From NCBI RefSeq assembly GCF_027943255.1, contig NC_072897.1, positions 21,452,044-21,516,043 of the forward strand: DNA of 64,000 bases, written 5' to 3'. Shown here in pieces: positions 40,349 to 64,000 of this stretch. The stretch is from Anastrepha obliqua. Taxonomy: Eukaryota > Arthropoda > Insecta > Diptera > Tephritidae. Positions within the stretch are counted from its first letter, which is position 1; each line of letters begins with the position of its first letter. The notes beneath the pieces were generated by a model. That model saw only the letters and a program-made list of their open reading frames with translations, did not search any database and was not told the origin of the DNA. The translations under genes were made by a program, and so were the position numbers.

Positions 40349-40359
40349 CTCATGTACTT

Positions 40360-41230: not shown

Positions 41231-41339
41231 GTTTTAATTAAAAGTGGGTTGGTTGAATGAATGAATTAAAACAGGCGCAACAAGTGCCTATTATAAGTTT
41301 CATAAAACCTATCTTTGTTTTTATTATTAATAAATGGTA

Positions 41340-42340: not shown

Positions 42341-42382
42341 TTTTAGTTTTTAGTTTTAAAAATATATTTAAAAAGTGCTCTC

Positions 42383-43145: not shown

Positions 43146-43252
43146 TATTTTAAAATGCCACTTTAACTAAAGTTCCGTTACGGATATTGAAATATCCAAT
43201 ATCCTTTATTAGGTAACTCAAAAACTGAAGGATTTACACGCGAGGATACACG

Positions 43253-43273
43253 GGTATCCTACCGACTGCGCCA
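43253..43273 (-). promoter_or_regulatory. Primer-binding site of errantivirus B
   Basis: The minus strand reads TGGCGCAGTCGGTAGGATAC right at the inner LTR edge, the tRNA-Ser-type primer site used by 17.6/297-like elements. It fixes the element's orientation and the LTR boundary at 43274. Confidence 0.75.
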
Positions 43274-43908
43274 CTTATTTCTCCGATACGAGGAGCATCG
43301 AAAAAAAAAATAAAACAACTGGTTTGAACTTCAATCAATAAAAAGCGATCATTCTTTATTTTCTTCTTTCTTAAATACTATTATTTTGTTTGTTCCTGCA
43401 TTTTTATTGGAAATTTAGCTATACAAATATAAATTAATTTAAAATAAATGTTTACATAATAATTCCTAGGAAATTTGACTGATGCGCTTTGTTAGCAGAA
43501 ATGCACCTGAACAAAGTATAACAATTCTTTTGAAAAAATATAAAGTTATAAATATATATTAAAATTCTTTGGAGTTAATAGTGCATTTTGTTAATAGTTA
43601 CATTTTTGTTAGCGGAAATGCACCTGAACTAATTATAGCACTTCTTTGGAAAAATAGAATTAATAAATATGTATATATTAAAAAAAAAATAAAATTAATG
43701 AATTTATAAATATATATTAAAATTCTTTGGAAATAATATTCTTTGCAGCGGATAAAGTATTCAAAATAATTGATAAGATTCTTAATAAGTTAAACAGCAT
43801 GTGTATATGTGCACGACCAAAATAATGTTAAGGGAACAGAGGGGGACACTATTACTAAGAGAATAGTGGGAGACACTATAACTAAGGGAATAGTGGGAGA
43901 CACTATAA
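43274..43908 (-). repeat. Errantivirus B 5' LTR (right)
   Basis: Bounded inside by the primer-binding site and outside by TTATAGTGTCTCCC at about 43908. U3 carries three exact-length 27-bp tandem units (43830-43856, 43857-43883, 43884-43910). A second internal duplication repeats ATATATTAAAATTCTTTGGA at about 43552 and 43715. Only part is shared with the left LTR. Confidence 0.7.
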
Positions 43909-43914
43909 CAATTA

Positions 43915-44345
43915 ATCTCGAGCCCCAGTGTGTGTGCTCCCCATTGAAGTCACCGCCCATTAAAAATCAGTTATCGTGACTATTAATTGGCTCTATGTAT
44001 TGGTCGCATTTGATCTGATGTTTTGGGGGACTATAGAATGCGGTGACTGATAAATACTTATCGCCCTCCACTTTTATGGTTATTGCTTGAAATTCAGGTA
44101 TAGAAATGATGCCTTCTTCGTAACGTTTTCAATATATTGCTTTTTATAATAATAGTAGCGCCTCCTCGTACGGCGTTGTTTGGGTGAATTGAATGATATG
44201 TATTGTAGTTTTTGAATTTGAGGTATGACTGCTAGGTGAAGTGCGTCTCAGATATTAGACAGATGTCGATTTTTTCGGTTTCTAAAGTCATTTCCAGCTC
44301 GCTTTGGTGTTTAAACAAGCCGTTTGCATTCCATAGCATTATTTT
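43915..44345 (-). pseudogene. Jockey-clade ORF2 endonuclease, N-terminal part
   Basis: Minus strand from about 44345: IMLWNANGLFKHQSELEM, then TEKIDICLISETHF (catalytic Glu), SYLKFKNYNTYHSIHPNNAV, RGGATIII and, near 43950, GGDFNGEHTHWGS. Frame changes occur. It follows ORF1 directly, as in Jockey elements, and is cut at 43908 by errantivirus B. The endonuclease tail and RT at 23237-25465 have the same orientation and lack just this part, so they may be the other half of this copy. Confidence 0.7.
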
Positions 44346-47130
44346 AAAAAAATTAGTCATTTTCATTCAGCTAGGTGTAGTGTTTTTTCGGGTTTTTGCA
44401 ATCTCTTTTCTGGTGTAGTCATAAACTCGTTTAGTATCGTTATTTTTTTCGATATTTGTTGTAGGATGTTAGCGTTTTCCGAGTGATAGTTTTCTTTTAC
44501 TACCTGTGAGAATGTGGGTATTTTAAGTGGTATAGCAGATGCTTTCCATTTCAATTCAACCGGGCTATTCGGGTCATGTTCTTCGATTTCGATGTAACTG
44601 AAATATGTTGCTCTATGGTCAAAATAATGAGACACGTATTTTTTTGTTCGCCCGAAAAAAAATTTTTTCAAGAGTTATCGGCAATTTTGTTTTTCGGCTC
44701 AAACTCGATTTTTTTTAAATATATAAGAAAAAAAATTTTTTAAATGCCCATAACTTAGTCAAAAATGAACCGATTTTAATAATTCTGGGTTCAAAATGAT
44801 CGTCATTAATTACTCGAGCGACTTCATGTAAAAACAATTGCAAAAAAGTAGTCGAACATTTTTTATTTAGGAAAAAAGAAAAAGAATTGAAATTTTTTCG
44901 AAATTCAATATTTCAAAAAGTGTATTTTTTTTGTTTTTTATAACTTTTTCCAAATCAAGAGGACACCTCAAACTTCAATTAAGATGAATGCCCGGTAGCT
45001 AAAATGAGTTGTTTTTGAGTAATGCATTTTTGAGTAAAAACCCTGTTTCGCACTTTTTGTTTTTTGCAAAATAAAAAATTTTCAGCGACCTTTTTCCAAC
45101 TGTTTCTACATGAAATCGCTCGTGTAATTAATGACGATCATTTTGAACCCAGAATTATTAAAATCAGTTCATTTTTGATTAAGTTATGAGCATTTAAAAA
45201 AAACTTTTCTTATATTATTAAAAAAAAATCGATTTTGAGCCGAAAAACAAAATTGCCGATAAAGCTTGAAAAAAAATTTTTCGGGTGAACAAAAAAATAC
45301 GTGTCTCATTATTTTGACCAGAGAGCAACATATTTGCGCTACATCGAAATCGAAGAACATGTCCCGAATAGCCCTTTTGAATTGAAATGGAAAGAATCTA
45401 TATAAGAAAATTTTTTTTAATTACTGATAACTTAGTCAAAAATAAGCCGATTGGAATAATTCTGGGTTCAAAATAATCATAATTACTTACACGAGCGACT
45501 TCATGCGGAAACAATTGCAAAAAAGTAGTTGAAAATGTTTTATTTTGCAAAAAACAAAAAGTGCGAATCAGGGTTTTTACTCAAAAATGCATTACTCAAA
45601 AACAACTCATTTTAGCTACTAGGCATTCAGCTCAATTAAAGTTTGAGATGTCCTTTTGATTAGAAAAAAGTTATAAAAAAAACAAAATACACTTTTTGAA
45701 ATATTGAATTTCGAAAAAATTTCAATTTTTTTTCTTTTTTGCTAAATAAAAAATTTTCAACTACGTTTTTGCAATTGTTTCTACATGAATTCGCTCGTGT
45801 AATTAATTACGATCATTTTGAACCCAGAATTATTAAAATCGGTTCATTTTTGACTAAGTTATGGGTATTTAAAAAAAAAAATTTTCTTATATAATTAAAA
45901 AAAATCGAGTTTGAGCCGTAAAACAAAATTGCCGATAACTCTTGAAAAAGATTTTTTTCGGGTGAACAAAAAAATACGTGTCTCATTATTTTGACCAGAG
46001 AGCAACATATTTAAGTTACATCGAAATCGAAGAACATGACCCGAATAGCCCGGTTGAATTGAAATGGAAAGCATCAGCATTGTTTTGCAAAATTGGTTTG
46101 CGGGTAAGGTTGTTTGGGCAGCTTTCTATAAGCTTTTTATTTATATATATATTTTTTTTTGCCTTGAATACTATTTAATTTATTTATTTTTGAGCCAGCT
46201 TTGTTGGTCATGTATCTTCTGCAGTTCTTTGGTAACAACCCATCCCCTGTAGCTCGCAGGATGGGCTTCGTCCCAATTGCAACATTTTGGTTGTTGTTCA
46301 GGCTTTGTGCATTCAATCGTTTTATGGTTGCCTGCGTATTTGACACACCTTGGTTGCTTGCCACAGTAGTTTTGCGTGTGTCTATACGCCTGGCATGATT
46401 TGCATTGCGGTTTGAGTTTTGATTGCCTCACAGCTTCAATAGCGACAGAGTGTAAGATTGTTTTTATTTCATTTATTTTCCTGATGTTTTCACTGGAATC
46501 AAACGTAACGAGAAACATATTAAAAGTTCTTTAGTTTCTCATTTTAATTTATTGACTGCGCTGATGGCTTTAAGTCCTTGCTTTTGAAGATATGATATTA
46601 CGATATGAAGATATTCTCCTGGATCACTCATATGATGCAAGTTCTTTACTATCACCTTAATAGGCCGGGATTGCTGTTTTCATATGTATACCAAGACAGT
46701 GGTTAGCATTTTTTCCATGTTTCTATAGTCATCAGGATCTGATGCATTGATTTTATAAGTATTATTATTTAAAAGTGTAATAAGAAACTATTTTTTCATA
46801 TCCTTTATCACAATATTAAAGATTTGTTGATAATCGCATTCTCCAGATATCATTATGGGTGAATAACGCGGCTTTTCTTCTCTTTTTGCTGAAGGATGCA
46901 ATTGCAGTAACTTTTGAGTTAGGAGCCTGTATTCCAGGTGATACTTCAGCCTTCCTTTTCTTACTTGGCCTTTTTTCAGGATCCAATCCGTTTCTGGTGC
47001 AAGTTCGTCTTCATCCGTTTCATATTGTACGTTAGTATCATTTCTTTTAGGAGTTGTATTACTCTCAATTTCGAATGTTGGCGTTAGACTATCTTATGGA
47101 ACGTAGAATTATCCCAACACCGGATAGTTC
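44346..47130 (-). pseudogene. Jockey-clade ORF1 (nucleocapsid-like), split by the foldback element
   Basis: ORF1 binds element RNA. The minus strand from about 47130: an acidic, Ser/Thr-rich N-terminus (near 47000-47100), PIKVIVKNLHHMSDPGE (46620-46680), then FLVTFDSSENIRKINEIKTI (46450-46515), and Cys-His knuckles CKSCQAYRHTQNYC, CVKYAGNHKTIEC and CCNWDEAHPASYRG (46250-46420), the second and third slightly altered. Past the foldback element it resumes as IPTFSQVVKENYHSENANI and ends at 44363. Frameshift near 46520. Confidence 0.75.
44538..46075. mobile_element. 1.54-kb foldback element made of two palindromes
   Basis: Ends GATGCTTTCCATTTCAATTC (44538) and the inverse ending at 46075, flanked by AGCA (44534-44537, 46076-46079). 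Inside are two successive palindromes, one centred near 44960 (arms about 44538-44870 and 45055-45395) and one near 45650 (arms about 45405-45560 and 45740-46075). The same end sequence (cgtgtctcattattttgacc) appears three times: 44600, 45300 and 45978. AT-rich, non-coding; short frames at the ends derive from the terminal repeat. It splits Jockey ORF1. Confidence 0.82.
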
Positions 47131-47339
47131 CGGAACAGAGTCACAATGACATTTCTATTCTATTATTCATTCTACTATTTCTTCTTCTTCCTCGTCTGTA
47201 CAACTTCTGCACTATTCATGCGAAAATACTCCTAGCCTAGAAAAGTGCCTACCTAACAGCCAATGGCCGGTGACAAAAGCCACTACCTTCGAGATGTTCT
47301 CTCTTGAGAGATTGAACAGTTCGCCTGATATTTTCCTAT

Positions 47340-47845
47340 CTAAAGGGTTTTCCTATAAGAGGTGTTATTTTGATATTAAAAGAAAAATTCAATTTTTTAA
47401 TATTATATAAATGATTGCATGTTTATTTCATTATAAAGACGAGGGAAGGTATGTCATTAATAGTGGAATATAACATCAGGCAAATGACCACCACGACCAC
47501 GCTTACAGAACAATATCCTTTTCATTGCAAAGTGGCTGCCCTATGTCCTCGATAGCCTCACGAATTCCATCTTTGAGGTCTTGAATCGACCCTGGGATGT
47601 TGTCATAGACCTTCTCTTTCACGCGGCCGCAAAGAAAAAAGTCACAAGGTGTTAAATCACAAGATCCCGGTGGCCAATTGTGATCACCTCTACGAGAGAT
47701 AACATGGTCCGGAAACTTTTCCCGTAAAAGATCAATGGTTTTGTTGCTTGTGTGGCACGTAGTGCCGATTCGTTGAGAATAAACATTGTCCAGATCAATA
47801 CCATCCAACTCTGGCCATAAAAATCGGTAATGCTCGGCTAATGGG
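47340..47845 (-). mobile_element. DD41D-like mariner fragment
   Basis: Left end near AAGGGTTTTCCTATAAGAGG. Minus-strand coding ELDGIDLDNVYSQRIGTTCHTSNKTID and SRRGDHNWPPGSCDLTPCDFFL are present in separate short stretches. The second catalytic Asp is replaced (RIGTT where QDGAT is expected), and the spacing to the third is the DD41D value. 5'-truncated near 47845. Confidence 0.75.
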
Positions 47846-48226
47846 CTAAGACTTCTGTCAGAAGTCCGGAAGTCGGACAGATAATTCTAATCGTAATTAT
47901 TTTGAAAAAACGCCGTTCGCATTTTCTAGCTTTGGTCCACCCGTGTAAAAATTTCTTTCCACCTTCTCCATGGTCTTTGGCCCTTATTATGAGCAACATT
48001 CGATCTTCGAAAATAGTCGAAAGTGCTGATCGAACGAATTTTCATTTGGTATTATGGTGCTCATTCGTTGAAGAATAGGACTATTGTGAATTTCGATCGC
48101 TCGACGCATTTACAATAGATAATTTTTTCAGCTGATACAGCAAATCAAAATAAAAGAAAAACCGATTGTGTTGAAATTCTTTGCTAACATTATTTTCAAA
48201 AGTTAAAAAAAGTAATTTATGTGAAA

Positions 48227-48705
48227 ATGAGTACAACGGAGTTGTGGTTCGACGATTCATCGGACGATGAAAGATTAGTGGAACTAGCTAGAAGTAGAAA
48301 ACAGTTAAGGGACGCATCCAACCCCCTAGAAATGGCTTCCACTGAGTAAGTTCAGAATTTTCAAAATGTGTTGACGTACTTAATATAACAGAAATTTCCT
48401 TACAGATTTTTAAAGAACTTTAGATTATCTAAAGAGGCGTTTGTGAACCTACTGTCCACTACAGAAAACCAGTTGCGGCAGTGCACCCGAGCCATGAGCT
48501 CTTCACTATTCTCCAAAAAAAGCAACACAAATTATTAATGTGTGTGCAGCTTTGCACAACATTTGCTTGTTTTATAATGTTCAACTTCCGGATGAAGAGT
48601 TATCCGATGAGACCCTCAACGATGATGCTGAAGATATTGAAGTGGAGCCAAATAACGGAGAAGCAGAAAACATTAGAAATGAAATTCTTAGAATATTATA
48701 GAAAA
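48227..48705 (+). pseudogene. Harbinger transposase remnant (N- and C-terminus only)
   Basis: Exon 1 starts at the ATG at 48227 (MSTTELWFDDSSDDERLVEL) and ends at 48345 before GTAAGT; exon 2 starts at 48406 after TTACAG and reads FLKNFRLSKEAFVNLLSTT to about 48490. It then jumps, in another frame, to VCAALHNICLFYNVQLPDEE and an acidic end with a stop near 48700. VCAALHNIC is the usual C-terminal signature. The DDE catalytic core between these parts is deleted, so there is no activity. Confidence 0.75.
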
Positions 48706-48780
48706 ATCTAAAAAGTATTAAATAGAAACCTTTACGCCACAGTTTCTGTTTTATTTTTGTTATAAATTTTCTTTATTCAA

Positions 48781-49154
48781 TTATTCGTCATTCGAAAAAA
48801 ATATGTATTTCAGTTCCTTTACGTATTTCAGCCCATACCTGCCAAGGGAAAATAAAAATGTATTTCTATAAACATCACAAAAAAAACCATTATTAACCTT
48901 AATCCATTTTGCTGCCGTTCTAACTGGTGGTCCCAAGCAATTCAGCTCCGTTGTAAATTCCACCCATTTTTTTGCTGCTTGTACTTTGGTGGAAATCCCT
49001 TTTGCGAATTGTGGATTCTCTTCCATTAATGCAACTAGCCTTTCTAATTGCTGTTTGGTACTCACGACTTTTGACCTGCATAATATTAACAAAATTAGTA
49101 TATATTTATTATTTGGTTACTATAAAACAATTAATAATCGCAAACAACTTACAT
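48781..49154 (-). CDS. Harbinger accessory Myb/MADF-like protein, truncated C-terminus
   Basis: Second gene of Harbinger elements; known partners carry a Myb/SANT-like DNA-binding domain and escort the transposase to the nucleus and element ends. The coding part joins 49153-49154 to 48781-49075: exon 1 ends in AT before GTAAGT and exon 2, after an ATGCAG acceptor, begins with G, so splicing makes the start codon. Residues: MSKVVSTKQQLERLVALMEE, then KKWVEFTTELNCLGPPVRTA and KWIKV, matching the domain. After KWIKV the sequence becomes unlike the family, so the C-terminal part is probably deleted. About 99 aa. Confidence 0.6.
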
Positions 49155-49367
49155 TTTAATTAACAAGTTTTCCCACAATACGCTACACAATCGAAAGCAA
49201 AATTGCATCGACAACCAACGGATATCGAAGATCGAATGCAACTCATAATAGGGGCCTTTGAGTTTGTTATTCTCATCTTGGCGGGATGCTAGTCATGAAG
49301 AGCCTGTCTAAGGTGGGTTTAGAGAAAGTGTAGTCGATTTCTTGATTAAAACTACTCATAGTATGTA

Positions 49368-50634
49368 TCAGGTCAGTCCATAAGTTCGTGCGTATTTTAC
49401 CCATAATTTCACTTTTGTACGATTTTTGCATACAAAAAGTTTCGCGGAATATAACAGAACTATCAATATTTTCTTTGATATATTCAACAAGTGATTTTAA
49501 TCGCGGATAGAAGCACGTGTTGTTAAAAAATAAAATGGAGCCTTCGAACGCGTATAAGAGGCATATTTTGTATTTTTTTTATAAAAGTGGTAAAAATGCA
49601 ACAACTGCTGCTGCAGAAAGAAACACTGTTCACGGAGAGGATACCGTGAGTGTAAGGACTGCGCAAAAGTGGTTTTCAAAATTCCTAAGTGGTAACTGCG
49701 ACGTGGAGGATGCCCCGCGCGCTGCTCGTCCTGAAGTCTTTAACTCCGACGCCTTGCTCGAACTCGAGGAAGCTGAGCCAAATTTGACAGTCGATATGAT
49801 AGCTCAGAGGTTAAATTCATCGCATGGAGCAGTTCACAGGCACCTAGTCCAGTTGGGAAAGGTTTCAAAGCTGGAAAAATGAGTTCCGCATAGACTTTCC
49901 GTCGCCGATCTTCAGTAGAGAGTGAATGTGTGTTCTCAGCTGCTGCAACGGCTTGAAAATGAAAGTTTTTTGAACCGTATCGTTACTGGTGATTAAAAAT
50001 GGGTCCTTTACAATAATCCTGTTCACAAACTCCAATAATTAGATAAAGATGAAAGACCAGAATCGACCCCTAGAAACGGCCTTCACCCCAAGAAGATTAT
50101 CCTGTCTATTTGGTGGGATATGGTCGGTATTGTTTATTATGAACTTCTGGAACTTAACCAGAATATAACTACTGATTATTATTCCCATCAGCCATAAAGT
50201 CTGAATGAGCCACTTAACAAAAATCGACCGTCTTTAGTGAATAGACGCAAAGTTTTGTTTCACCACGAGAACGCAAGACCTCAAAACACAAGGCCAACAT
50301 TAGGCAAGCTGAACGAGCTTGGATGGGAGCTAATTCCGCATCCGTCATACTCTCCGGATATTGCACCTTGTGATTGTCACCTTTTCCGTGGACTTCAATC
50401 TCGTATGATTAACAAGAAGTACTCATCAAAAGAACCTATAAAAAGGGATATCGAAGCGTATTTTGGCTCCAAGGACAAAAAAATTTTAGAGCAGGGAATT
50501 AAAAATCTGCCTAAGCGTTGGTAAGGCATTGAAAATGATGGAGGGAAATATATTATTGATTAATAAATACTTTAAACACCTTTTTTAGTTTTAAGGACAC
50601 CTTTAAAAACGCATGAACTTATGGACTCACCTGA
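49368..50634 (+). mobile_element. mariner (DD34D type), complete ends, dead transposase
   Basis: A 1267-bp element with ends TCAGGTCAGTCCATAAGTTC (49368) and TCAGGTGAGTCCATAAGTTC (reverse from 50634), flanked by TA (49366-49367, 50635-50636). Transposase from ATG 49517 or 49535: SNAYKRHILYFFYKSGKNAT, WFSKFLSGNCDVEDAPR, stop at 49880-49882, then RIVTGD followed by a stop, WWDMVGIVYYELLELNQN, HHENARPQ (second catalytic Asp changed to Glu), HPSYSPDIAPCDCHLF (third Asp). At least four stops. The minus-strand copy at 25466-28711 belongs to the same family. Confidence 0.85.
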
Positions 50635-52799
50635 TAGTATAGAAACGTGCCCAAACCGCAAGATGTTTATCACACCGAGCGTGTTATTGAGGGTGGTCCT
50701 TAAAGCTCCGGTGATGCATAAAAACGCAATTCTTTGGTTCTTGTTCAGCCGCTTCGTATAACTTGCCTTTTAAGTTGATGGCCACCATACATCAAAGAAG
50801 GCCGAACTACCGAGTTGTAGAGCCAGTGTGTGATATGGAATGTTAATCCCCATTTGATTCCGACCAATTTTTTGCATGGGCTCAATGCAATGTTAGACTT
50901 TTGATCCCTATTCTCAATATTAGATTTTCACGTAAATTTCTTGTCAAATATGCTCCCTAAGTGTTTAACATTATCTTTCAAAGGAATCTCTACACCCATG
51001 AAAATTAGCGGGGAGACTGTGGAGTGGAAACTATTTTTCCTTGTAAAAAGAATTAGTTCAGTTTTATTGGTGTTTATTTCGAGTCCCCTATTCTCTGTGC
51101 AGTAACTAAGTGTGGCCATGTTAGAACGCAGAATATCCCTGAGCGTGCTTGGATACTTGCCTTTAACCGCGATTGCCAAATCGTTAGCATTAGTTGTGAT
51201 ATAGCAACCTCCTCTCTTTAGGCCCAGCAGAAAGGAGTTCACTGCCAAAATTCAGGAGTTCACTGCCCCTCCCGAAGGAGTACTTGTGCAGACCTGTCTG
51301 CTTACTATTGTGGAGCCTAATCTTCCAGTTACCTTGCGTCTAACAAGTATAGTCTCGATCAGAGTAGACTGCAAAATCTTCTAGGGCACCCGTTATGACA
51401 CTTTTACTAATATTGTTAAAGGCCCCTTCAATGTCTATAAAAGCTACCAAAGCACACTCTTTTCCTACCAGGCTCTTTTCCACGAGCCCGACAAGCGAGT
51501 GTAAAGCAGTTCCTGTAAATTTGACTCTTATGTATGTGGGTTGTGTCAGGGAGAACCTGCTGATTGGTATGACGGACCGTAAATACTCATCGACAATCCT
51601 TTCTAGAATTTTGAGGAGGAAAGGCGTGAGACTGATAGGTTTGAATTCTTTAGGATTAGTGTGTGCGTCTCCCTCCAATTTAGCAGAATGTAGCCCTTAT
51701 TCAAGCAGCTTCTAACAATGGCTGTAATGAACGGAGATATTTCAACCCGTGATTGCTGTAACTCTGCCGGATAATAATAAATAAATAGTCTAGGTGATCC
51801 AAAAGTGCTAACAGCCCATTCAATTTTCTCATTTCGATTACCCTCCCATTAATAGCAGAGTCATTACGCTCTACCGGCTTGTTGACTGAGAAGTGTGCGT
51901 CTAAGAGGAGACCTAAAGATTCCTTACTTAAAGTGCTCCATGAATTTCCTAGACCTTTTAGATAGCCAGCTGCCTTTATAGGAATTCTTCTAAACTGGCC
52001 GCTCCTGTAGTGTCTTCAGTTTTTGCCAGGATTCGCGTTGCGCAGTTCTAACTGCTTTTCTGAAGATCTTTAAGTCAGCTTTGTAAGCTAATCTGTCTTC
52101 GTACCTTCTCATGGCCTTGGCCAAATTGAATAGAGTCCTCTTGGATTTTCCTAACGACTTTATTGTTTATCCACCAAGGTGGTTTTGTCTTTCCTCTATG
52201 GCGCACAACCGGGCATCCAGCTTCGAGTGAACTATTCATGGCTTTCATTACCTGATAAACCAATGCGTCTAGTTCACCGTATGTGGTAGGATAAAGCAAT
52301 AAAGCCCTGCATATGTTTTTGTATACTTCCCAGTTTGTTTTTGGATGTTCCTAAACTCATACACTTGGAGAAGCTTATGATCAATGACAAATTCTATGTC
52401 GCGACGGTCAGAGTACAATTTTTTCTCAAGACTCGCCATCTCTTAACGTGGGTAGAAAGTAGGTCAGAAGCCAGGGTCAAGTCCAAAACTTCTGACGCCG
52501 TTTTTGTTTCAAAGGTCGACTCTGAGCCTAAATTCAAGACATTAAGTTTATTTTCTAATAACGACTCATCTCTGTCATTAGTGTCTCGTTACTCCCCCAC
52601 AATTTATTATGGGCATTGCATTGCAGGAGACAACTAGGTGCTTTTTCAGTTTAGCTGGCTCCTTAACAAGCACCCTCACCACATATGGCGGGGCGTCCAT
52701 TTCGTGTGCGATATAAGCGGAGGCTATCCAAAGCTGTTCTTGCCCAGCTCCATATTTGCCGCCACCAACACATACATAGGTATGCTACCTTAAATTTAT

Positions 52800-53430
52800 G
52801 TGCAATATAGTAGTCACAATTTGTTCTAATGTCCAATATGAGTATGTTTCAGAAATTATAACTCTTTACAAATATTTATAAAGCAAGAATATCTGAAATG
52901 AGCATGGTTTTTTACAAAGTGTGAAGAAAGGTGATAAAAAGTAGAAATAAATAGTAAAATAATAAATACTAGGATTGCCCGTACGTCGAAATTTCGACGT
53001 TATATAAATACGGAGAGCAAAATTTAGTCACACCTTTTTTTAGTATATCACCAATGAAATTAAAAAAAATCGCAATGTACAAATTATTTTATTTTCATTC
53101 GAAGCACTTTTTTCCTTATTAAAATTAATCTATAATTAACACTTACTCTCAATTTTTGTTTGAAACACAATTAACTTCACACTTCCTTCACAATTTTTAA
53201 TAGAATGAAATGTTATTTTTTTGTTTGCAATTATGCTACACTATCGTCACACACCATCCCTTTCTAATTAATACTATGAAAAGAGATAAGAAGTGACGCC
53301 AAAATTATTTACCCATGCAAATGTACGAAGAAATCAACTTTTAATACATAAAAAAATTTGTTTGCAACAGCTGATCAGCTATTGAAACGCATAAAAACTT
53401 TCCATATACACATAAACGTTAAAACGTATA
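52800..53430. other. Unassigned AT-rich sequence with an 18-bp perfect palindrome
   Basis: Contains ACGTCGAAATTTCGACGT at 52983-53000, a perfect palindrome. No gene seen; it may be the edge of an unknown element (preceded by TACTAGGATTGCCC). Confidence 0.5.
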
Positions 53431-53433
53431 AAC

Positions 53434-53555
53434 GAATAGTGTGAAAATGAAATGATTAAGAGTGCAGCTATAGTAAATAAATATATAGCTATGTTTCTTA
53501 ATCTTATTCTTATATACATAGCATCATTGTTTTGTATTTCATCTTCACACTATTC
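53434..53555. repeat. Short inverted-repeat hairpin
   Basis: GAATAGTGTGAAAATGAAAT (53434-53453) and its near-inverse ending at 53555 enclose about 80 AT-rich bases. A related TTCACACC occurs near 53590. MITE-like, family unknown; a target duplication is not evident. Confidence 0.55.
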
Positions 53556-53824
53556 TATTATGTGATTATATACATAATATATATAGAATTTTCACACCAA
53601 AAACTCTGTTGCCATTACAGTGCGACTATATCTATGTAAAAATATATTTCTCCCGCTCTAACATACTATTAATACAGGTAAAAGAGTGTGATTATTTTTA
53701 CCTGCACCTATTCACTTATGTACCATATCCATTTTAATACATTGTGCAAAGGCCCAAAGCTTTGTATAAAATTAATGATTTAAATAATGCACTTGTCTAA
53801 TAAAAAATAATTTGTCAATTTCAG

Positions 53825-53991
53825 GAGTTTTGCAATTAAACAAATTCGGTCGTCTGTATGACCTGGAGATACATTTACGGCAGGTGGATCCTACTACATA
53901 CATCAAGGCTTTGAATGAGCTGAAAGACAAAGAAATACATAATTTGATAATCGATACAAATGCTGCAAATATTTCCATCCTGCTTAGGGGG
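53825..53991 (+). CDS. Candidate host exon: ionotropic glutamate receptor amino-terminal domain
   Basis: A 167-bp stretch bounded by a good acceptor (TTTGTCAATTTCAG, ending 53824) and donor (GGG|GTAAAG, 53992). It is open in one frame and reads LYDLEIHLRQVDPTTYIKAL then NELKDKEIHNLIIDTNAAN and ISILLRG. The pattern of a beta strand, LRQ, about ten residues, LKELK-like, KEIHN-IID and a closing ILL resembles the amino-terminal (LIVBP-like) domain of kainate-type receptors. Phase: it begins with two bases completing a split codon and ends on a codon boundary. No TE features. Neighbouring exons are not visible, which fits large TE-filled introns. Could be an isolated remnant; subtype not assignable. 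Confidence 0.55.
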
Positions 53992-55044
53992 GTAAAGTAG
54001 TAAAATTCATAATTTATATATTTACCTAAAAGTATTTGTGCACTAGCATTACAAAATATTTTTTATCTATGCTAGGTTTTACTAAGTAATAAGTGGAAGT
54101 GGAACAATTACAGCGGCAATAGTCAGCAGTACGAGTTTAATTAATTTAAATTAGGCATTAGATACGTGTATTCTCATTCGCTTATACCATAAAAAGCTAA
54201 ACGGTGTTATCGATTAGTAATGATGTAATACTTCACTAGCATATTGCTTCGAGTTCATATGAATATGTACGTAGTAGAGGTACAAAATTAGGTGGGACTT
54301 CAATTTGGAACACAGTATCTTTATGCACGAGGGACTTAGTCCTACATAGGCAGAATTATGACCGCTTCCTTACAAACGAAATGCAAAAATCTCATATAAA
54401 CAAAAAAAGTTATACTATCCCATAAAACTAAGCGCATACTATGCTTTTATAATTCTTTTTTTTATTTAATTATCTTAGTAAATAAGTACATATACGAGTA
54501 TTTAGCCCTTTTAGATCCTGCTGTAGACATCGTAAAGGTTGGTGGAATTTGTTATACTCATTTGTATATAATATAAGACAAGGGCACCTATTAGTCGGTT
54601 ATTTATTTTTATTTGCAATATATGTTATTCCTATCATTAAAGTACACTTACTTCACAATTTTTTGTCAATCAAATGGTAATTATGTTGCTTGTGAAAAAG
54701 AGGCGTGCAGGTAAGTTCAGATATTTTTGATAAATTTAAATTTGGACTACATAAGTGTGATGTTGTGTGATTGCACAATTAATATTACATACTAATTTTT
54801 TAGAGAAGTGTTTCTTTTGTCAGTTTTGTGAATTTTTTCTAAATGCGTAAATTTTTAATGATTATTAAGAAACCAAATTAAGGGTTTAATTATGTCTTAG
54901 AATTATGAAAACATTTTATTATCGAAAAAAATATTTTAACAGTACTTTAACCATGAGTCTGAAAAATATTTTCGAAATTACAAGCAAGCTTTTAAAGACG
55001 TGCCAACGATTTCTTCAAACTACTTTAAATCACATTGTTAGCCT
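53992..55044. other. Unassigned AT-rich sequence (probable intron)
   Basis: Follows the donor of the candidate receptor exon. No further exon of the same protein was found. A donor-like GCAG|GTAAGT at about 54708-54717 has no convincing coding context. Confidence 0.45.
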
Positions 55045-55480
55045 ATTCCAATACCAGCCGCACCGTTAGAATAGGGAAGGACCTCTCCGAGCCGTTTTAT
55101 ACCAAACGAGGTTTCAGACAAGGTTGTGTAACTTCTTTAACTTGATGTTGCAAAATATCTAGCGAACCGCAGAACTTAACCGCTACGGCACAGTTTCTAA
55201 TAAGAGCGTGCAATTGTTGGCGTATGCTGATGATATTGATACCATCGGCCTTAACAACCGCGTTGTTAGTTCTGCCTTTCCAAAATTGGATAAAGCAAAG
55301 CGAGAATAAAACCGAAGTACCTCCTGTCATCAAAGGAAAAGTCGGTGCACTCGCACATCGGCACCCACGTCACTGTTGACAGTTATGATTTTGAGGTTGT
55401 AAGGGACTTCGTTTATCGAAGAAATAGCATTAACACCGATGACAATGTTAGCCTTGAAATCCAACGTAGAGTCTGTGTTT
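55045..55480 (+). mobile_element. RTE copy D, short internal fragment
   Basis: Matches the RT core of copy A from about 4525 to 4985: TVRIGKDLSEPF-like, RGFRQG, LLAYADDIDTIGLNNRVVSS and the HIGTHVTVDSYDFEVVRDFV region, with several small deletions and stops. Truncated at both ends; the right edge is a Loa fragment. Confidence 0.8.
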
Positions 55481-58015
55481 ACGAGTAATATATTAATAGT
55501 TTCTCTTTCTATCAGTAATTTACAAGTGGCTATGTGCAGAGTTTCAACGCTTTAACCGATTGATTGGTTTGGATTGTACCTTTTCTGGTAAGATCATCTG
55601 CTAAACAGTTTCTTGCTATACAGGGTGGCTGATGAATTTTGCTACATTAAGAAACTCAAATAACTTTTTTTTAGTGTATGGAATTCATTTTTTTTTTTTT
55701 TTTCCAGTTGAAGGTCATTAAATTTTATTAAATGTAGCTTAACTAGTTTTAAAAATAATTGAATTTAAATGCCCCCCATGCTCGTTGACACAAGTGCGGC
55801 ATCTTAGTAAAAAATTGTTCATTGCTGCTTTGAGAGTTGCGACAGGAATAGCCGCAATTGTTGCCCGAATGGATTGTTTTAGTTCATCCAAATTTGTTGG
55901 CTTTGTTTTATAAACTTCTTGTTTACATAAACCCCACAAGAAAAAGTCAGGTGCAGTAAGGTCAGGCGACCTGGGGGGCCAACGAAATTCGGAGTTTCTT
56001 GAAATCAGTTTATTGGGAAATTTTCGTCGCAACTCTGTCATAACAGTCTGGGCTATGTGAGACGTTGCCCCATCTTGTTGAAACCACACAGAGTTGAAAG
56101 GAATTCTCTTTCGGCGTAGTTCTGGATAGAAAAATTCTTTCAGCATTTTCATATAACGGTCTCCAGTAACCGTAACGGTGTGACCATTTTCTTCAAAAAA
56201 ATAAGGCCCGACAATACAGCGTGAAGAAACCGCACACCACACTGTCACGCGAAGAGGATGCAATTCCGTCTCGTGGAGTATCTGTGGGTTAGAAGTACTC
56301 CATATTCGACAATTTTGTTTGTTCACATTGCCGTTTAAATCGAAATGGGCCTCATCAGACATGAAAAGGCAGTTTAACATGTTTTGGTCTTCTTCCACCA
56401 TTTGCAGGATCTTCTGGCAAAATTCCAAGCGAATCGGCAAGTCTGCTGCATTCAGTTTGTTAACCATTTGAACTTTGTAGGGAAATAAGTTTAAATCTTT
56501 GTGCATTATTGTTTGCAAAGACTGTCAGCTGACACCAAGTTGAGCAGATAAGCTTCTTGTTGAAACCCTTGGATTGCTTTGTATAGCTGCAGCTACAGCA
56601 GCGATCGTTTCCTCCGTCCGAACTGGTGGGTTTCGATGATAAGGCCTTCTTGCGACTGTTCCTTGCTCAGCAAAATTATTCACCAGTCTCATTATGGTCC
56701 ATCTGCTCGGGGAATCGCCGCCAAACATGCGCCTGTACTCTCTCTGTACCAAAACTACGGACTCCAGTGCGTGATAGCGGCGGACTATCCAAATTCTTGT
56801 TTGCGTGTCCCAGTTATCCATTTTAATAAATTTTAAAGATCAATCTGCAAATTAAAACAAAAATGGAACAGATAACTTAAAAAGAAAAAAAGTTATTCAA
56901 TTTTTTTTTGGTAGCGGCTTTCATCAGCCACCCTGTATTTCTATAGCCTGGCACCCAAATGAAGTTTGCATTGAAATGCTGGGATAAGTCGTTTATGAGT
57001 TTATAACGTTCTATAACTGTTTTTGACGAGTTCGTGTTGGGTTCTAGCGCTTTTGTTGCTATGAATGGATAATAAAATTCCTGATAGATAATACTCTCGT
57101 ATTTATTGCTGTAAGTCCTTCCTTAATATAGCAGCGACTTCCGCTTCAAATACTCTACAGTAATCGGGTAGGCGGAAAGATTGCTTTATCTCCGGTTTTT
57201 CGGAGTGGACCCATTCACCTACTAATTATCTAATTTTGAGCCACCTGTATAGATAGTTATTTTATTTTCATTTTCAATAAGTCCGTTATCCCGATCTTCC
57301 CTTGAAGGAAACATTGCGATACAAGATTTATTTAAGTTAATGTCCTTGGTATTACAAAAGTATGTTTCACAAGGAGTACAATCCAATATGGTCAAATGGG
57401 GGTCGTTCTGAATGAGATTATTTTCCTTAATCTGAGAGCTGGCAGCTACTTGCTTACCGAATAGTTCGTTTTGTAGAAAGTTCAGCATAATATTAATGCA
57501 TCTGTAGGTGTGGAGCCGTTAGCCACAAATACAATCCCTAGTATTTTTGATGTACCCCCTATTTAAAGTCGGGCACCATATCAGTACGCCGTAAGTTAGG
57601 ATTGGTCTTACTATTACTGCTGTGTAAAGCCAATGAACAATATAAGGGGAAAGCCCCAAGTTAATCCTATTAATATTTTACGTGAGTAAAGTGCTACAGT
57701 GGTTTTTCTTACTCTATCTGTACCGTGCCACTTCGTTACGCAGGAACTATTTTCGGAATATTGTGTTTCCTATTAAATAGAACCATTTCGGTTTTGTTTG
57801 GGTTGGTGTTTTGCCCGTTTGCTTTCGATCACTTTCGAAACGAATTGAATAGTCAATGCATAATTTAACATAGCGTATTGGAAAACCCTCTTACTGCAGT
57901 AGCAACATCATCCTCGTAGGCTGCGATTTGGGCTTCGATTTTCGCCAGTCCCTTTAGCAATACATTTATTGCCAGTACCCAGAGAAGAGGGGAGAGAATA
58001 TTACAACTGTCTATA
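55481..58015 (-). mobile_element. Loa-type fragment (RT thumb and RNase H), split by a DD41D mariner
   Basis: Minus strand: NPNKTEMVLFNRKHNI (near 57760-57810), WLYTAVIVRPILTYGVLIW (near 57565-57630), ENKITIYTGGSKLDN (RNase H start with Asp changed to Gly, near 57225-57270), VFEAEVAAI-like (near 57135), then NFIWVPGYR (near 56940), where the DD41D mariner is inserted, resuming at 55618. Multiple frame breaks. 5' truncated near 58015. Confidence 0.7.
55621..56935 (-). mobile_element. DD41D ('rosa'-type) mariner, copy 2, one nonsense codon
   Basis: Inverted ends CAGGGTGGCTGATGAA and TA duplications (55619-55620, 56936-56937). The transposase reads from ATG 56821 to 56525, stops at 56522-56524 (TGA in place of the CGA Arg codon of copy 1, in LGVSRQS), and is otherwise open from 56518 to 55739 with all three catalytic Asp residues. 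The protein differs from copy 1 at only a handful of residues (for example N for D in KDLDLF, C for Y in LNYLF), and the C-terminus is a few residues longer. A very recent relative of 26594-27882. Confidence 0.9.
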
Positions 58016-58084
58016 TTAACAATAAGTAATTTGTTTTACAAATATTTGGATAGTTAAGTAATACTGTAAGGCCATTGCTCTTCC

Positions 58085-59920
58085 GGATCATTTAGGAATA
58101 TCTAATTCGTTTTTAAGATATTTGCTATGATAATTATCATTATAATTTAGATAAATACATAAATATATTTCCTATTATTACACTACAAGAGGTCGGTTGG
58201 TGTTTTTCGTTTAAGCTTCCTATCCTTCAGCAGAAGGCATTCTCAGTTTGTATTGCTTCGTCAACTGTGTCGATGTTTAAGTCGCGGTGAATGTCAGCGT
58301 TTGGTATACGACTTATTGTCCTAAATATCTTCGATTAAGCACGTTGTAGTGTTGTCAAATTGGATTTAGAAGCTGTACCCCAAACTTCTATACCATACTT
58401 CCAAATTGGTGAAATTTTCATTATGTAGATTAAGGCTTTGTTTTGCAGCGAAAACTTTGACTGAGGTCCTTGCGGCCAGTACAGTTGCGTGAATTTACAT
58501 TGTACAGTACAGTGAATTTTAATTTCATTACATTTTTTATTATTTGGTCCTTCCAGTTTAGTCTAGAGTCAATCGTAATGCCTAAGTATTTAGTTTTCGT
58601 ATCAGTAATCGCGTCAGAGTTTCCAATCTTTAACGAGTCTATGGTTTCCTTTCTGTTCGTGTAATTGACTTGAATTGTTTTGTCGCCATTAATTTCTATA
58701 TTTTTTGAACCAATCTAGTGTTTTGTTCAGGTCGTTTTGTAAATTCGATTGTGCTGTATTCGGGTCTCTATTATATGCCATTAGTAAAGTATCATCTGCA
58801 AACGTCGCAATCATGCCGTTTCCTTAAGACGGCTCCGATAAATCAGCGGTGTAGATGAGATACAGAATGGGTCCTAGTACACTGCGTTCATACGTTCAAC
58901 GTATGAACATGCGTCGTTATATTTAACATAAAATTTTTTGTCTTGGATGTATCTTTTTAGCATTAGAAAATAGTCATTCGGTAACCAAAGTTGGAGTTTG
59001 TACAGTAATCTAGGGGGTCATACTTTGTCAAAGGCTTTAGCTATGTGGAGATATACAGTCACATATAATTGCTTATTGTTAAGTCAATTTTGTGAGTGAC
59101 ACTGACCACCTGTTGGATTGTTGGATGTTTTCGACGTAGTCCGAACTGATGTTGGGGAATTTAATTTATTTATGTGATGATAGGCTCTATGCGGTCAAAG
59201 AGTAGTTTCTCAAATATTTTTGATATTGCCAGCAGCAGACTTGTTTTGGTCGGTACCAAGATTGAGTTTGGGACCGCAATGATTTCGGCAACTTTCCACG
59301 TTCTTGGGAGGTATTTGAGCTTTATAGCAGTGTTGAAAACGCTCCCAAGACAAAAAACTGCTTCGTCATATCCAAGAGATTTGTTGTTTTTTAATGTCGA
59401 AATTTATCTCCGTTAGTGAAGTTTTTTTAATGGTTTGCTCGAATATTTTTAAAATCTTGAGCTAAAAAAGTCGCTTTTTCCGATGATGTTCGGGCCTATT
59501 GTCAGTTTGTGGTTCTTATTGGTGGGAGGTGTATTGTAGCTCCGAAATCTTGTATTCTACCATGTTTTCCTCAGTTTCCCCTCTTGGTTTTTTATTGCGT
59601 CAGGAATGTAATATTTTATAGTTTAAAGTTGTAGAGTTGGTGTAGATCGGTTTAGTGACATAATAGCCGTGTCATTAAAAGAGCTATTGCAATTTCATTA
59701 TCGTTGGTAGTTTTTAAAGGAATTTTCCAGTCAAGGCTTTGTTCCATTATTTCCATAAAAGCCTCCCAGTCTTTTCGATGGTTATAGAGTGTCCGACTAA
59801 GTGTTAGTTGCAGGCGGATTTGAATTGGCAGGATGATTAGTGAATGATCAGACGAAAATTCACAACAGGATTTAATTGTCAGCATTTTTAAATTTATTGC
59901 CAGTCTGGCACTCCTCAAGT
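58085..59920 (-). mobile_element. Second Jockey-clade fragment (ORF2)
   Basis: Minus-strand pieces: endonuclease end SSDHSLIILPIQIRLQLT and NHRKDWEAFMEIM (59750-59860), SVLGPILYLIYTADLSEPS and ATFADDTLLMAYNRD (FADD catalytic box, about 58775-58875), TKYLGITIDSRLNWKDQI (58540-58590), and KYGIEVWGTASKSNLTTLQR (58345-58410). Frameshifted many times; no ORF1. Different from the Jockey at 23237-25465 (distinct wording of the same motifs). Confidence 0.7.
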
Positions 59921-59924
59921 AGCA

Positions 59925-60890
59925 CTAAAGCGCCGTTTTGAAACCATTATCAGACCTCCACCAGACAGATATCTACAGCCAGCCAGAGCTGTTGATATAA
60001 TGGAGAAGATTGATACGATTTAGGTTGGCTCACTGCTCCAGGCTGTCAAAGAAAGGAACACCCAGTGGCGATTAAGGCTGCCAAGCACGGAAATTAACAG
60101 AGAAAGTGCTCAACAGTCTCCTTCTCTTAAAGCTCCCCACAGCTTATGCAATGAGGTTAAATGGTAACCATACGCGGAATAGCGCGTGTATGTCGATCGT
60201 CCAGTGAGCGGTATATACAGTTACTAGTTTTGAAATTGAATGGCGAGGAGTACAAAGGACTTTCTGCGTTCTACTTATATTGTACTGCTGCTAAAAGGTT
60301 TTCGAAATAGCACATGAAGAAATGGAGCTCCATCGTTTCTGCGCTTTCCTGAGAAATAATTTGTGCAGTTCCCTTTTAACAACTGCTAGAGGGATGCCGC
60401 TGACCGGGTAGGAGGTCTCTGAGGCCAATTCAGTCTCCTTCCTGGCAAAGCTAATCAGCAATTTCATTTACCTCCATGTTCCTATGTCCCGGAATCCAGA
60501 TCAGAAAAATGTTACCTGCACACCTAAGAAATTTGTTATCCGCCTTACACGAGCTTACTAGCTTCTTCTGCACTATGGCGTCGTCAGAACCTTGATCGCG
60601 GCGTGACTATCAGAGAAAATGTTAATATCTCCCTCGCTCCCACGTTCCCTAAGCATTTTGCATGCCTGCCTGATCACATAGATTTCTGCTTGAAAGACAG
60701 CAGTATTCGGCAGATTAAAAGAGATGGATAAATTGGGTGATTTAGAGAAAACCCCTGTTCCGACTCCCGATTCCATCTTGAAACCGTCAGTGAAGACAGA
60801 GGTGCATGCTTCGGTGCAGATTTCCCCTTGATCCAATCCTGCCTATTTGGAAAGATTACCCTAGCACGACCCTCAAACTCTAGTTTTCGG
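59925..60890 (-). mobile_element. Loa-type fragment with RNase H
   Basis: The minus strand 60836-60573 is open and reads TSVFTDGFKMESGVGTGVFS (catalytic Asp kept, Ser of FTDGS changed), AVFQAEIYVIRQACKML and INIFSDSHAAIKVL, three of the four RNase H motifs. The WIPGHRNMEVNEIAD-like fourth motif is at about 60460-60500. The rest to 59925 is degraded 3' sequence. Confidence 0.7.
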
Positions 60891-60894
60891 ATAA

Positions 60895-61680
60895 AAAAAG
60901 AGGTTGTCTGTAAAGATAGTTTGACGTGACAACGTCATAAGAAAATACTGATGGAATGGTTGCACTTTTCAAGAGAAAATTTTAATTTTATTTGTTTGAT
61001 AGATATTTTGTATGGATATAGAGAAGGAGGTAAATGGAATTGCAATGAAATTGATAAAGTTACCTTTACACAAACATGAAAAATGACGAAACATTTATCA
61101 AATTCATAAAAGATATGTTCAATTTCGATTGGGCATCAGACAACACTAAGAGGCAACATCATCGATTTGACTTTTTTAATACGCATTACACTCGAAACAC
61201 TCCCTTTCGTTTCCTACTTTTCTTATCATATCATATCGTAGAGAATAGATTCGTCTTAAAATTCGATTTGATATGTCCATATGATTTGTATGCATCTTTA
61301 CAAATAGATTTTTTCTCTTTGTTTGCAAATTGCGCGAAATTTTATATATGCATGTTTATATGTGTTGGCATAGGACATATGTATATTAGTCTATGAAAGT
61401 TGCACCAAAGTATATGTATGTATACATTTTTATATATTGTACATATATTAGTATACAACATATCTTATAAGGTATGTGGTAAATATATATTACCATACAT
61501 TTTTTCCTTCATATATAATAATAAATTAATAATAAAAACATTAAAACAACAGGTATAATTAACAACTAGTCGTCACTAATTATAAATTCTGTATATAATT
61601 ATATATCATTATTTATATTTATATACAATATCTTTAGTTCTATTTTTATATTTATATATATATATATATAACCCATTATA
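60895..61680. other. Unassigned AT-rich sequence
   Basis: Includes TATA microsatellites (61640-61670) and a 106-codon open frame at 61076-61396 without recognisable motifs, which I do not regard as a gene. Confidence 0.5.
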
Positions 61681-63284
61681 AAGCGTTTTTCAGTAAGAGC
61701 GCTTCAACTTTTTTTTTTGAATAAAACACAAACGGTTTGACTTTTTTAACTAATTTTTTTTATTATTATCGAGTTTGAACATATACATTTAAGTATGAAA
61801 TTCGATTTCTTTTGCATGACCACCGCGTGCACGTTTTACGAAGTCCAATCGTTGAACCCAATTTTCGACCACTCTTTTGCATAAATCGGCCGAAATTCCA
61901 GCAATTTCGCGTTCAATATTGGCTCTGACTTCACATCACCCCAAAGAAAATAGTCTAGAGGCGTCAAATCACACGAGCGCGGCGGCCATTCGACCGGTCC
62001 ATTTCTGGAAATAATGCGCTCATCGAATTTACTCTTCAACAAATCAATTGTAGCGTGTGCTGTGTGGCTTACGGTCCCGTCCTGTTGAAACCACATGTCG
62101 TCTAAGTCCATACCATTCAATTGCGGTCAAAAATAATTGTTTATCATGTCGCGGTATCGATTTCCATTCACAGTAACGTGGCGATCGTTCTCGTCAACGA
62201 AAAAATATGGGCCAATTACGCCGCAGGCATGTAAACCGCACAAAACAGTCACTCTTTGTGGGTACATTGGTTTTTCGGCAATCTCTCTTGGATTATCTTT
62301 CGCCCAAATGCGGAAATTCTGCTTATTGACGAATCCACTGAGGTGAAGTGCGCGATATGCATTTTGATTTGAGGGGGAAGTCTACTGTGAATTTTTCAAA
62401 AAATCGATTTTTTTTTATTAGCTTAAAAAATACTTTGAACCCTCTTAAATAAGGTACAATATGTGTTACAGCTGGCTAAATTTTTCTTCGTTGAAATTTC
62501 GACCTTTTCCCGAAGCGCTCCAAAGCGCGTACCTGCGGCACATTCCACTTTAAACGCATTTTTCTCGAAACTAAGTTTTTGTATACGGTGTACACGATAT
62601 CTCGAGTTCTGATAAATGAATCAGCTTAAAAATTTAATTATATATTCTCTGTAATAGTGTCTCTCGTCTGACATAGGATTCTTTTGATATCGTTATTTGT
62701 TAAATTGTTATAAACAGTAGTAACATCAATTTTAGGCAAAAAAAAAAGAAAAAAATTTCAAGAATTTTTTTTTCAACGCCAAAATTTTTTATCGACATAA
62801 TCCTACGAGAGTCAATACTATGTATATGATAACAATATTTTGTTTTTTTGTTTTAGATCACCGAAACGTAAGATTTCATGTACACCGTTTAGGCACCTAA
62901 GAAAAGCGGACCTGCGCTTGCAGAAGTGCCACAGCGGCCATTTTGAATATTTTGACTTAAATTTTTTTTTTTCAAAAACTTAAATATATAATAAAGATAA
63001 GAGTTTAAATAGATTTTATGTACGAGCAATATTTTGTTAGAAATAAAATCCGGAAAATAAGCCTGTTTTTTCCCTTGTCACAGTAGACTTCCCCCTTGAA
63101 CGCCCGTTTTCATAATAAGCCTAAATAACTTTAACGCGTTGCTCAAGTGTGTAGCGTTGAAATGTGTGTGTGATGAAATGTATACTAATGAAGTTTACAA
63201 ATGACAAGCGAAAAATAAAAAAATATTGCGTCGTTCGCCCTCCCTATCGGAAAAAAGTTGAAGCGCACCTATTGAAAAACACTT
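61681..63284 (-). mobile_element. DD41D-type mariner with a nested element and an internal deletion
   Basis: Ends AAGCGTTTTTCAGTAAGAGC (61681) and AAGTGTTTTTCAATAGGTGC (reverse from 63284), TA at both sides (61679-61680, 63285-63286). The minus strand gives the N-terminus TLEQRVKVI and YYENGRSNQNAYRAL (63100-63165), then after the nested element HLSGFVNKQNFRIWAKDNP (62280-62345), MWFQQDGTVSHTAHATIDLL and WPPRSCDLTPLDYFLWGDV. I count 41 residues between the second and third Asp. The stretch between AYRAL and LSGFVNKQN is deleted (first catalytic Asp lost). A terminal piece of the same family is at 10967-11019. Confidence 0.82.
62373..63095. mobile_element. 723-bp inverted-repeat element nested in the mariner
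   Basis: Ends GGGGGAAGTCTACTGTGA (62373-62390) and the exact complement (63078-63095), flanked by TTGA (62369-62372, 63096-63099). Non-coding, AT-rich apart from the middle (two short GC-rich segments near 62500-62560 and 62900-62945). The 4-bp duplication and G-rich ends do not match a family I can name. Since it cuts the mariner, it is younger. Confidence 0.8.
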
Positions 63285-63458
63285 TATAAATATTATTGTT
63301 AAATTTATTTGTAAATAAACATAATAATAACATATATAAACATCATTATTATATTTATTTTTATGTAAACATAACAACAATAATATATATATGTATCAAC
63401 ACATCGTTGTTATGTATATAAACATAATAACGCACACACGCCCACACGCATACAAACC

Positions 63459-63541
63459 AAACAAAACACAACATAACACAACATAACCTAACATAACATA
63501 ACATAACATAACCTAACATAACATAACATAACCTAACATAA
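63459..63541. repeat. AACATA / AACCTAACAT minisatellite
   Basis: Runs of ACATA and CCTAACATA units (about 5-20 bp mixed periods). The only long open frame across it is a by-product of the repeat. Confidence 0.8.
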
Positions 63542-63724
63542 CGAGAATGGGCCAAAATACCTCAAGATCACATTCGTGCAGCATGCAACTAAAATTGTAA
63601 TCATTTTTGAACAATTTTTTCTTTGAAATCAATAAAAACTAATGTCACACATATCACCAAATAAATTTAATAATATTTTCACATACATATACATATATTC
63701 GAAATTTTAAATAAGGCAACTGCC

Positions 63725-64000
63725 TGGGCCCAGGCTATGGTTGGGGGCTCATCATTTGTTAATGCAGAGGCACTATTATTGAAGACTCTTTGCTATCGAC
63801 CGATATGGTTGTATTAAACGATGGAAACCTCATCTAGTCCCTCTCAGTACATGGAAAATAATCAATGACCTTTACGGAAGTGACCATTTTCCTATTGTTA
63901 CTGAAATAGCATCCACTAAGGAGTACAACAAAAACAAATATAACCCCAAGTTTTTGACAGACAAAGCAGATTGGACTAAATATCAAGAAATGTGCACAAA
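63725..64000 (+). pseudogene. Non-LTR endonuclease (C-terminal part), runs off the window
   Basis: From about 63765 one frame reads SLLSTDMVVLNDGN and a second LVPLSTWKIINDLYGSDHFP then IVTEIASTKEYNKNKYNPKF. GSDHFPI is the conserved Asp-His motif near the end of the EEP endonuclease of Jockey/I-type elements, and TDKADWTKYQEMC is the usual linker to the RT. One frameshift near 63835. The RT lies beyond base 64000. Confidence 0.7.

What the first reader, a model, noticed from the sequence alone, without database searches (positions are those of the whole stretch)
53825..53991. Possible single glutamate-receptor exon stranded in TE-filled DNA
Acceptor, donor, one open frame and a protein pattern like the kainate-type receptor amino-terminal domain, in a region otherwise nearly all TEs. 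If real, the flanking tens of kilobases would be introns of a neuronal or gustatory receptor gene, making this a case of extreme intron growth.
Basis: partly seen in the sequence, partly recalled or inferred. Interest (0 to 1): 0.75.

Follow-up and report, generated by a model that had tools for sequence, protein, structure and literature searches.

The report
Fly glutamate-receptor gene, 1.6 megabases long
A tiny stretch of code lost among jumping genes looks like a real exon of a fly brain-receptor gene whose coding parts are scattered over 1.6 million bases, because four of its introns have swollen to hundreds of kilobases.

Summary
Window 53825-53991 is exon 4 of a kainate-type ionotropic glutamate receptor gene in a fly closest to the tephritids. 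Alone it is too short for Pfam or PDB searches. Searched with the Bactrocera dorsalis receptor, the genome returns it at E = 1.6e-20, 75% identity. Eleven further exons (the first tentative) lie on the same strand, in order, with GT-AG borders and matching phases: 944 codons without a stop over 1,623,077 bases. Four of 11 introns are gigantic: 504,697, 279,187, 646,539 and 173,598 bases; the other seven are 63 to 6,426. A paralogue on the same chromosome has introns of 59 and 74 bases at the two positions flanking this exon, yet spans 1.13 Mb through other introns. Thirteen ionotropic-receptor clusters on other chromosomes span at most 163 kb, though an autosomal GABA-B-like gene reaches up to 487 kb. 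The chromosome carries 7 of 9 loci of the Drosophila fourth chromosome, so it is probably Muller element F, the ancestral fly X. This is intron gigantism, a known phenomenon, in a new place. Transcription and splicing are inferred.

The parts
53825..53991 (+). Exon 4 (167 nt; enters with two bases that finish a codon, leaves in phase 0) of a kainate-type glutamate receptor gene: part of the amino-terminal (ANF_receptor) domain
   Evidence: E = 1.6e-20 in a genome search with B. dorsalis P0005; 44/55 identical to B. neohumeralis; same borders and phases as the paralogue's exon; one match in a DNA search of the genome
53803..53824 (+). Splice acceptor of intron 3 (T-rich stretch ending TTTCAG)
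   Evidence: Sequence; phase fits exon 3 at C6:21000919-21001170
53992..53997 (+). Splice donor of intron 4 (GTAAAG)
   Evidence: Sequence; phase fits exon 5 at C6:21785222-21785449
1..53824 (+). Last 53.8 kb of intron 3 (504,697 bases in all), with many mobile-element ORFs
   Evidence: Exon coordinates; mobile-element ORFs; no N in the window
53992..64000 (+). First 10.0 kb of intron 4 (279,187 bases in all), with a mariner-like element at 55753-56839 on the - strand
   Evidence: 'mariner-like' is a name given by eye

Best explanation
The exon is a working part of a kainate-type glutamate receptor gene that spans at least 1.62 Mb on chromosome C6. C6 is probably the Muller F element, that is, the ancestral fly X. 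Shown: twelve collinear exons (the first tentative), one open frame, compatible phases, close relatives of the whole protein in other flies. Inferred: the whole stretch is transcribed as one pre-mRNA, and the giant introns are removed so that the receptor is made in neurons. Also inferred: four introns grew because mobile elements kept inserting on a chromosome where they are poorly removed, while the other seven stayed small. At a recalled elongation rate of about 1.5 kb per minute one transcript would take about 18 hours. That would suit long-lived, non-dividing neurons and hardly allow expression in fast cell cycles.
For:: exons found in order on the + strand of C6 with the B. dorsalis receptor; 12 exons, 944 codons, 0 stops, 12 of 12 acceptors AG and 11 of 11 donors GT, introns of 63 to 646,539 bases; best of the 120 matches listed are B. 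neohumeralis, B. tryoni and C. capitata kainate 2; best solved structures GluK2, ahead of GluA. ANF_receptor, Lig_chan-Glu_bd and Lig_chan all over cut-off; the paralogue's two introns at the same places are 59 and 74 bases. C6 kainate clusters 1.62 and 1.13 Mb against 13 ionotropic-receptor clusters on other chromosomes of at most 162,891 bases; mobile elements in the introns, one family with at least 40 copies 98 to 100% identical; 7 of 9 fourth-chromosome marker loci on C6.
Against: No transcript evidence exists here. The start-codon exon was not found. Exon 1 (14 aa, 8/14 identical) is tentative. Several donors are poor (GTACTG, GTGATT, GTATTT). Most of the intron sequence was not read, so assembly gaps or false joins there were not excluded. 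RpS3A, an F-element gene in Drosophila, lies on C3, and one of two plexins on C14. Large introns are not confined to C6: four pieces of a GABA-B-receptor-1-like gene on C5 run over 487,016 bases, two of the four below the family cut-off. Nor are all C6 genes large.
Confidence: 0.92

Rival explanations
1. The gene is really much shorter and the assembly inflates it: wrong joins or misplaced repeat blocks separate neighbouring exons.
For: Repeat-rich regions are hard to assemble; outside the window I read only 200 to about 3,400 bases around each exon, and the rest of the introns was not inspected.
Against: The exons are in order on one strand of an 80.85-Mb contig. The window has no N. A second kainate gene and a MUN-domain gene on the same contig show the same pattern, while ionotropic receptors on other chromosomes do not.
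Confidence: 0.05
2. The exon belongs to a dead or broken gene: the exons are relics in a decaying locus.
For: A partial inverted copy of exon 11, with a stop in the match, lies in intron 7, so fragments of this gene do get copied.
Against: 944 codons without a stop, all phases compatible, exon 9 35/35 identical to each of six other flies, exon 10 202/219 identical to B. neohumeralis.
Confidence: 0.02
3. Two separate transcripts are made, one from the exons before a giant intron and one from those after it, and are joined by trans-splicing or not at all.
For: Introns of 505 and 647 kb would be hard to transcribe; no transcript evidence is available.
Against: Genes with megabase introns are transcribed in Drosophila (kl-3 and kl-5, PMC6508621, passages); here the exons are collinear on one strand, which trans-splicing would not need.
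Confidence: 0.01

Closest known systems
Ekar (CG9935) and CG11155, the two kainate-type receptor genes of the Drosophila fourth chromosome
   Same: Two kainate-type genes on one chromosome that in Drosophila also carries mGluR, unc-13 and plexins (PMC10847715, passages; PMC4382183, passages), as C6 does; full domain set
   Different: Which of the two it matches was not resolved. Both genes here are megabase-sized; the Drosophila ones are, from recall, tens of kilobases at most.
Expanded Muller F element genes of Drosophila ananassae (PMC5555453, passages read)
   Same: Transposon-rich introns; a subset of introns expanded, giving a bimodal size distribution; coding part little changed
   Different: There the median increase of the coding span is 32.5 kb and the top quartile of intron increase starts at 97.6 kb; here four introns of one gene add up to about 1.6 Mb.
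Gigantic Y-linked genes of Drosophila such as kl-3 and kl-5 (PMC6508621 and PMC11207136, passages read)
   Same: Introns of hundreds of kilobases or more and over 99% of the gene intronic
   Different: Those are Y-linked, expressed in the testis and filled with satellite DNA; this one is presumed neuronal on a presumed X, and in the window mobile-element ORFs rather than tandem repeats stand out (8 tandem-repeat rows in 64 kb).

Membership tests
Kainate-type ionotropic glutamate receptor | Amino-terminal domain, glutamate-binding domain and channel domain in order | tested here: met
   PF01094 156.7 bits, PF10613 146.6, PF00060 172.4, all over cut-off, on 813 of the 944 residues
Kainate-type ionotropic glutamate receptor | Closer to kainate than to AMPA or NMDA subunits | tested here: met
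   With the 648-residue model, of the 60 PDB rows shown (of 388) the first 17 are GluK1-3 or two entries named only 'Glutamate receptor', and GluK5 follows; best 593.7 bits, best row named Glutamate receptor 1 464.5. The 120 homologues listed (of 1,853) are named kainate 1 or 2 or Ionotropic receptor 3 or 9, or carry uninformative names.
Kainate-type ionotropic glutamate receptor | Glutamate- or kainate-gated current | not testable with these tools
   Needs expression
Gene with intron gigantism | Introns of hundreds of kilobases within one open coding sequence | tested here: met
   4 of 11 introns are 173,598 to 646,539 bases
Gene with intron gigantism | Introns are transcribed and spliced out | not testable with these tools
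   No RNA data held
Satellite-filled Y-type giant gene | Introns dominated by satellite DNA | tested here: not met
   Only for the 64-kb window: 8 tandem-repeat rows at score 100 or more, the longest 349 bases
Muller element F gene | Lies on the chromosome that holds the other Drosophila fourth-chromosome genes | tested here: met
   7 of 9 loci on C6: two kainate, one mGluR-like, one Eph-like, one plexin, two MUN; exceptions: the other plexin on C14 and RpS3A on C3. Eph and the second MUN gene (Cadps) as F markers are recalled; the rest are from PMC10847715 and PMC5555453 passages.
Muller element F gene | Sex-linked (half coverage in males) | not testable with these tools
   That the dot chromosome is the tephritid X is from PMC4400102 (passages); not tested in this genome

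The most novel reading that the evidence does not exclude
In this fly the ancestral X has turned a large share of its neuronal genes into megabase genes, and intron length itself has become a regulator: transcription that takes most of a day confines these receptors to long-lived, non-dividing neurons, and the splicing machinery copes in somatic cells with introns that in flies are known mainly from genes of the male germ line.
Probability: 0.18. Interest if true: 0.78.

Novelty: new member of a known kind. Interest (0 to 1): 0.6.

Why it matters
Gigantic introns in flies are known mainly from Y-linked testis genes full of satellite DNA and from a few autosomal genes (PMC11207136, passages). 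An intact-looking channel gene with 0.17% coding sequence, in DNA with copies of a recently active element family, offers a natural experiment. Paralogous introns at the same position and phase differ by a factor of about 8,500 (504,697 against 59 bases), so the cost of intron length for transcription and splicing could be tested in one animal. It is also a warning for gene annotation: a pipeline with a limit on intron size would cut this gene into pieces.

Tried and rejected
Exon alone against Pfam and PDB: no receptor hit; at 70 residues it is short and diverged, so I do not count this against it. Chance open frame: not excluded by the frame alone (0.024 per frame), excluded by homology. Recursive-splice (ratchet) sites in the window: 3 matches to YAGGTRAG on the + strand and 1 on the - strand, only one (31093, +) with at least 13 of 20 pyrimidines upstream; too few to claim anything, so dropped. 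RpS3A as a marker of element F failed (on C3) and is kept as evidence against. Naming the gene as Ekar or CG11155: not resolved, since the listed homologues do not bear these names. Naming the species: not attempted beyond 'closest to tephritids'; the Anastrepha ludens genome paper is not held. Searches for print on giant introns in a tephritid or F-element X listed nothing on this gene or on megabase introns on a tephritid X; these are ranked listings of at most 20 papers each, and alone had 817 papers with at least 3 of its 4 terms. In two papers on the dipteran X the word intron does not occur (PMC13231274; PMC10715201; passages). This is not proof of absence.

Full report
What is there. 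Window 53825-53991 is flanked by an acceptor (TTTCAG) and a donor (GTAAAG) and is open in one frame. A DNA search of the 836,466,488-base genome finds it once, at C6:21505868-21506034. Alone it hits no Pfam family at E up to 10 and no receptor in the PDB at E up to 1. Its translation finds one other place in the genome, C6:50884247-50884375, 40% identical, E = 1.3e-4. That place turned out to be the same exon of a paralogous receptor gene.

The gene. Family searches for the ligand-binding, amino-terminal and channel domains of ionotropic glutamate receptors showed further pieces on the + strand of C6, far beyond the window and in domain order. The nine exons first joined gave 648 codons without a stop. 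A protein search scored the 7,987 candidates sharing most words; of 1,853 with E up to 0.001 the 120 best were listed, led by kainate 2 receptors of Bactrocera neohumeralis and B. tryoni (80% over 100% of the query) and Ceratitis capitata (73%). In the PDB the best is GluK2, at 593.7 bits; the best row named as a GluA subunit has 464.5. A search of the genome with the B. dorsalis protein P0005 then gave the missing pieces, and the window exon at E = 1.6e-20 and 75% identity. The final model has 12 exons (C6, + strand): 20997014-20997058, 20997145-20997303, 21000919-21001170, 21505868-21506034 (the window exon), 21785222-21785449, 21785541-21785693, 21785757-21785960, 22432500-22432703, 22606302-22606406, 22607023-22607680, 22613004-22613192 and 22619619 onward. 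They join to 944 codons with no stop; 12 of 12 acceptors are AG and 11 of 11 donors GT. The fetched stretch ends inside exon 12, whose open frame is 217 aa. The start-codon exon was not found, and exon 1 (8 of 14 residues identical to B. neohumeralis) is tentative.

Sizes. The model spans 1,623,077 bases, of which 2,836 (0.17%) are coding. Introns in order: 86, 3,615, 504,697, 279,187, 91, 63, 646,539, 173,598, 616, 5,323 and 6,426 bases. The distribution is bimodal: four giants, seven small. The window exon sits between the 505-kb and the 279-kb intron.

Controls. The second kainate gene of C6 (- strand, 49754349-50884902, 1,130,554 bases) has an exon with the same borders and phases as the window exon. 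Its introns on the two sides are 59 and 74 bases. So the same two introns differ by factors of about 8,500 and 3,800 between paralogues, while the paralogue grew elsewhere: the largest gaps between its successive matches are about 351, 260, 206 and 232 kb. Clustering all 180 rows by one rule (same contig and strand, gaps up to 700 kb) gives 38 clusters, 4 of them on C6. Sixteen hold rows of the ionotropic-receptor searches: the two C6 genes, one C6 fragment of 117 bases, and 13 on other chromosomes that span 168 to 162,891 bases; some of these are partial or hold more than one gene. On C6, MUN-domain pieces of one gene run in profile order from 19219474 to 20040014 (0.82 Mb), while those of the other MUN gene lie within 37 kb. 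Two amino-terminal-domain pieces of an mGluR-like gene lie 0.44 Mb apart (only the first was checked further). Eph-like and plexin pieces are close together. So large genes are frequent among the few C6 genes looked at, but not universal, and not exclusive to C6.

Which chromosome. In Drosophila, Ekar, CG11155, mGluR, unc-13, PlexA and PlexB lie on the fourth chromosome (PMC10847715, passages; loci 102D1 and 102F8 for Ekar and CG11155, PMC4382183, passages); RpS3A is an F-element gene (PMC5555453, passages). Eph and Cadps are recalled. Of 9 such loci sought here, 7 are on C6, one plexin is on C14 and RpS3A is on C3. C6 is therefore probably Muller element F, which is the X in tephritids (PMC4400102, passages). 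Sex-linkage was not tested.

What fills the introns. Of 20 ORFs of at least 160 aa in the window, 10 were searched. Eight match reverse transcriptase, transposase, Helitron, PIF1-helicase, endonuclease or RNase H families. The other two lie in two copies of one element, at 26690-27778 and 55753-56839; 40 of its 279 candidate places in the genome were scored, all 98 to 100% identical. That family has thus moved recently. Tandem repeats are few. The rest of the introns was not read.

How it most likely works. Shown: an intact-looking, conserved, collinear coding sequence. Inferred: one long transcript, spliced to a normal receptor, in neurons. Growth of a subset of introns by mobile elements is what was described for the F element of D. 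ananassae (PMC5555453, passages: coding spans larger by a median of 32.5 kb, bimodal intron sizes). Megabase introns are transcribed through in the Drosophila testis (PMC6508621 and PMC11207136, passages). The present case combines the two at a scale that I did not find in print (listings). The Ceratitis orthologue is listed on a contig of 292,840 bases. If its model comes from that contig, the gene there is under 0.3 Mb and the growth is lineage-specific.

Verdict. It is a striking member of a known kind, not a new kind of system.

Noticed in passing
G000:C6:22356744-22356860 (- strand), inside intron 7, outside the window: An inverted partial copy of exon 11 (residues 735-773 of P0005, 85% identical, with one TAG in the match): a fragment of the gene copied back into its own intron.
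   Followed up: no
window 26690-27778 (+) and 55753-56839 (-): Two copies of a mariner-like element (name by eye; no Pfam match) with at least 40 genome copies at 98 to 100% identity (40 of 279 candidates scored): a recently active family.
   Followed up: partly
G000:C6:19219474-20040014 (+): A MUN-domain gene (Cadps- or unc-13-like) whose five domain pieces run in order over 0.82 Mb, about 1 Mb upstream of this gene: a third giant gene on C6.
   Followed up: partly
G000:C5:16412357-16899372 (+): Four pieces in profile order of a GABA-B-receptor-1-like gene over 487 kb on another chromosome (two of the four below the family cut-off): large introns are not confined to C6.
   Followed up: partly
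window 11175-15340 (-): A Helitron-type element: Helitron_like_N and PIF1 helicase ORFs close together on one strand.
   Followed up: partly
window 5509-6363 (+): A 284-aa ORF directly after a reverse-transcriptase ORF; by eye it has a membrane-anchored tail like a retroelement envelope protein. Not searched.
   Followed up: no
G000:C3:70971773-70972788 (-): RpS3A, an F-element gene in Drosophila, lies on another large contig here, so it may have moved in one lineage.
   Followed up: no
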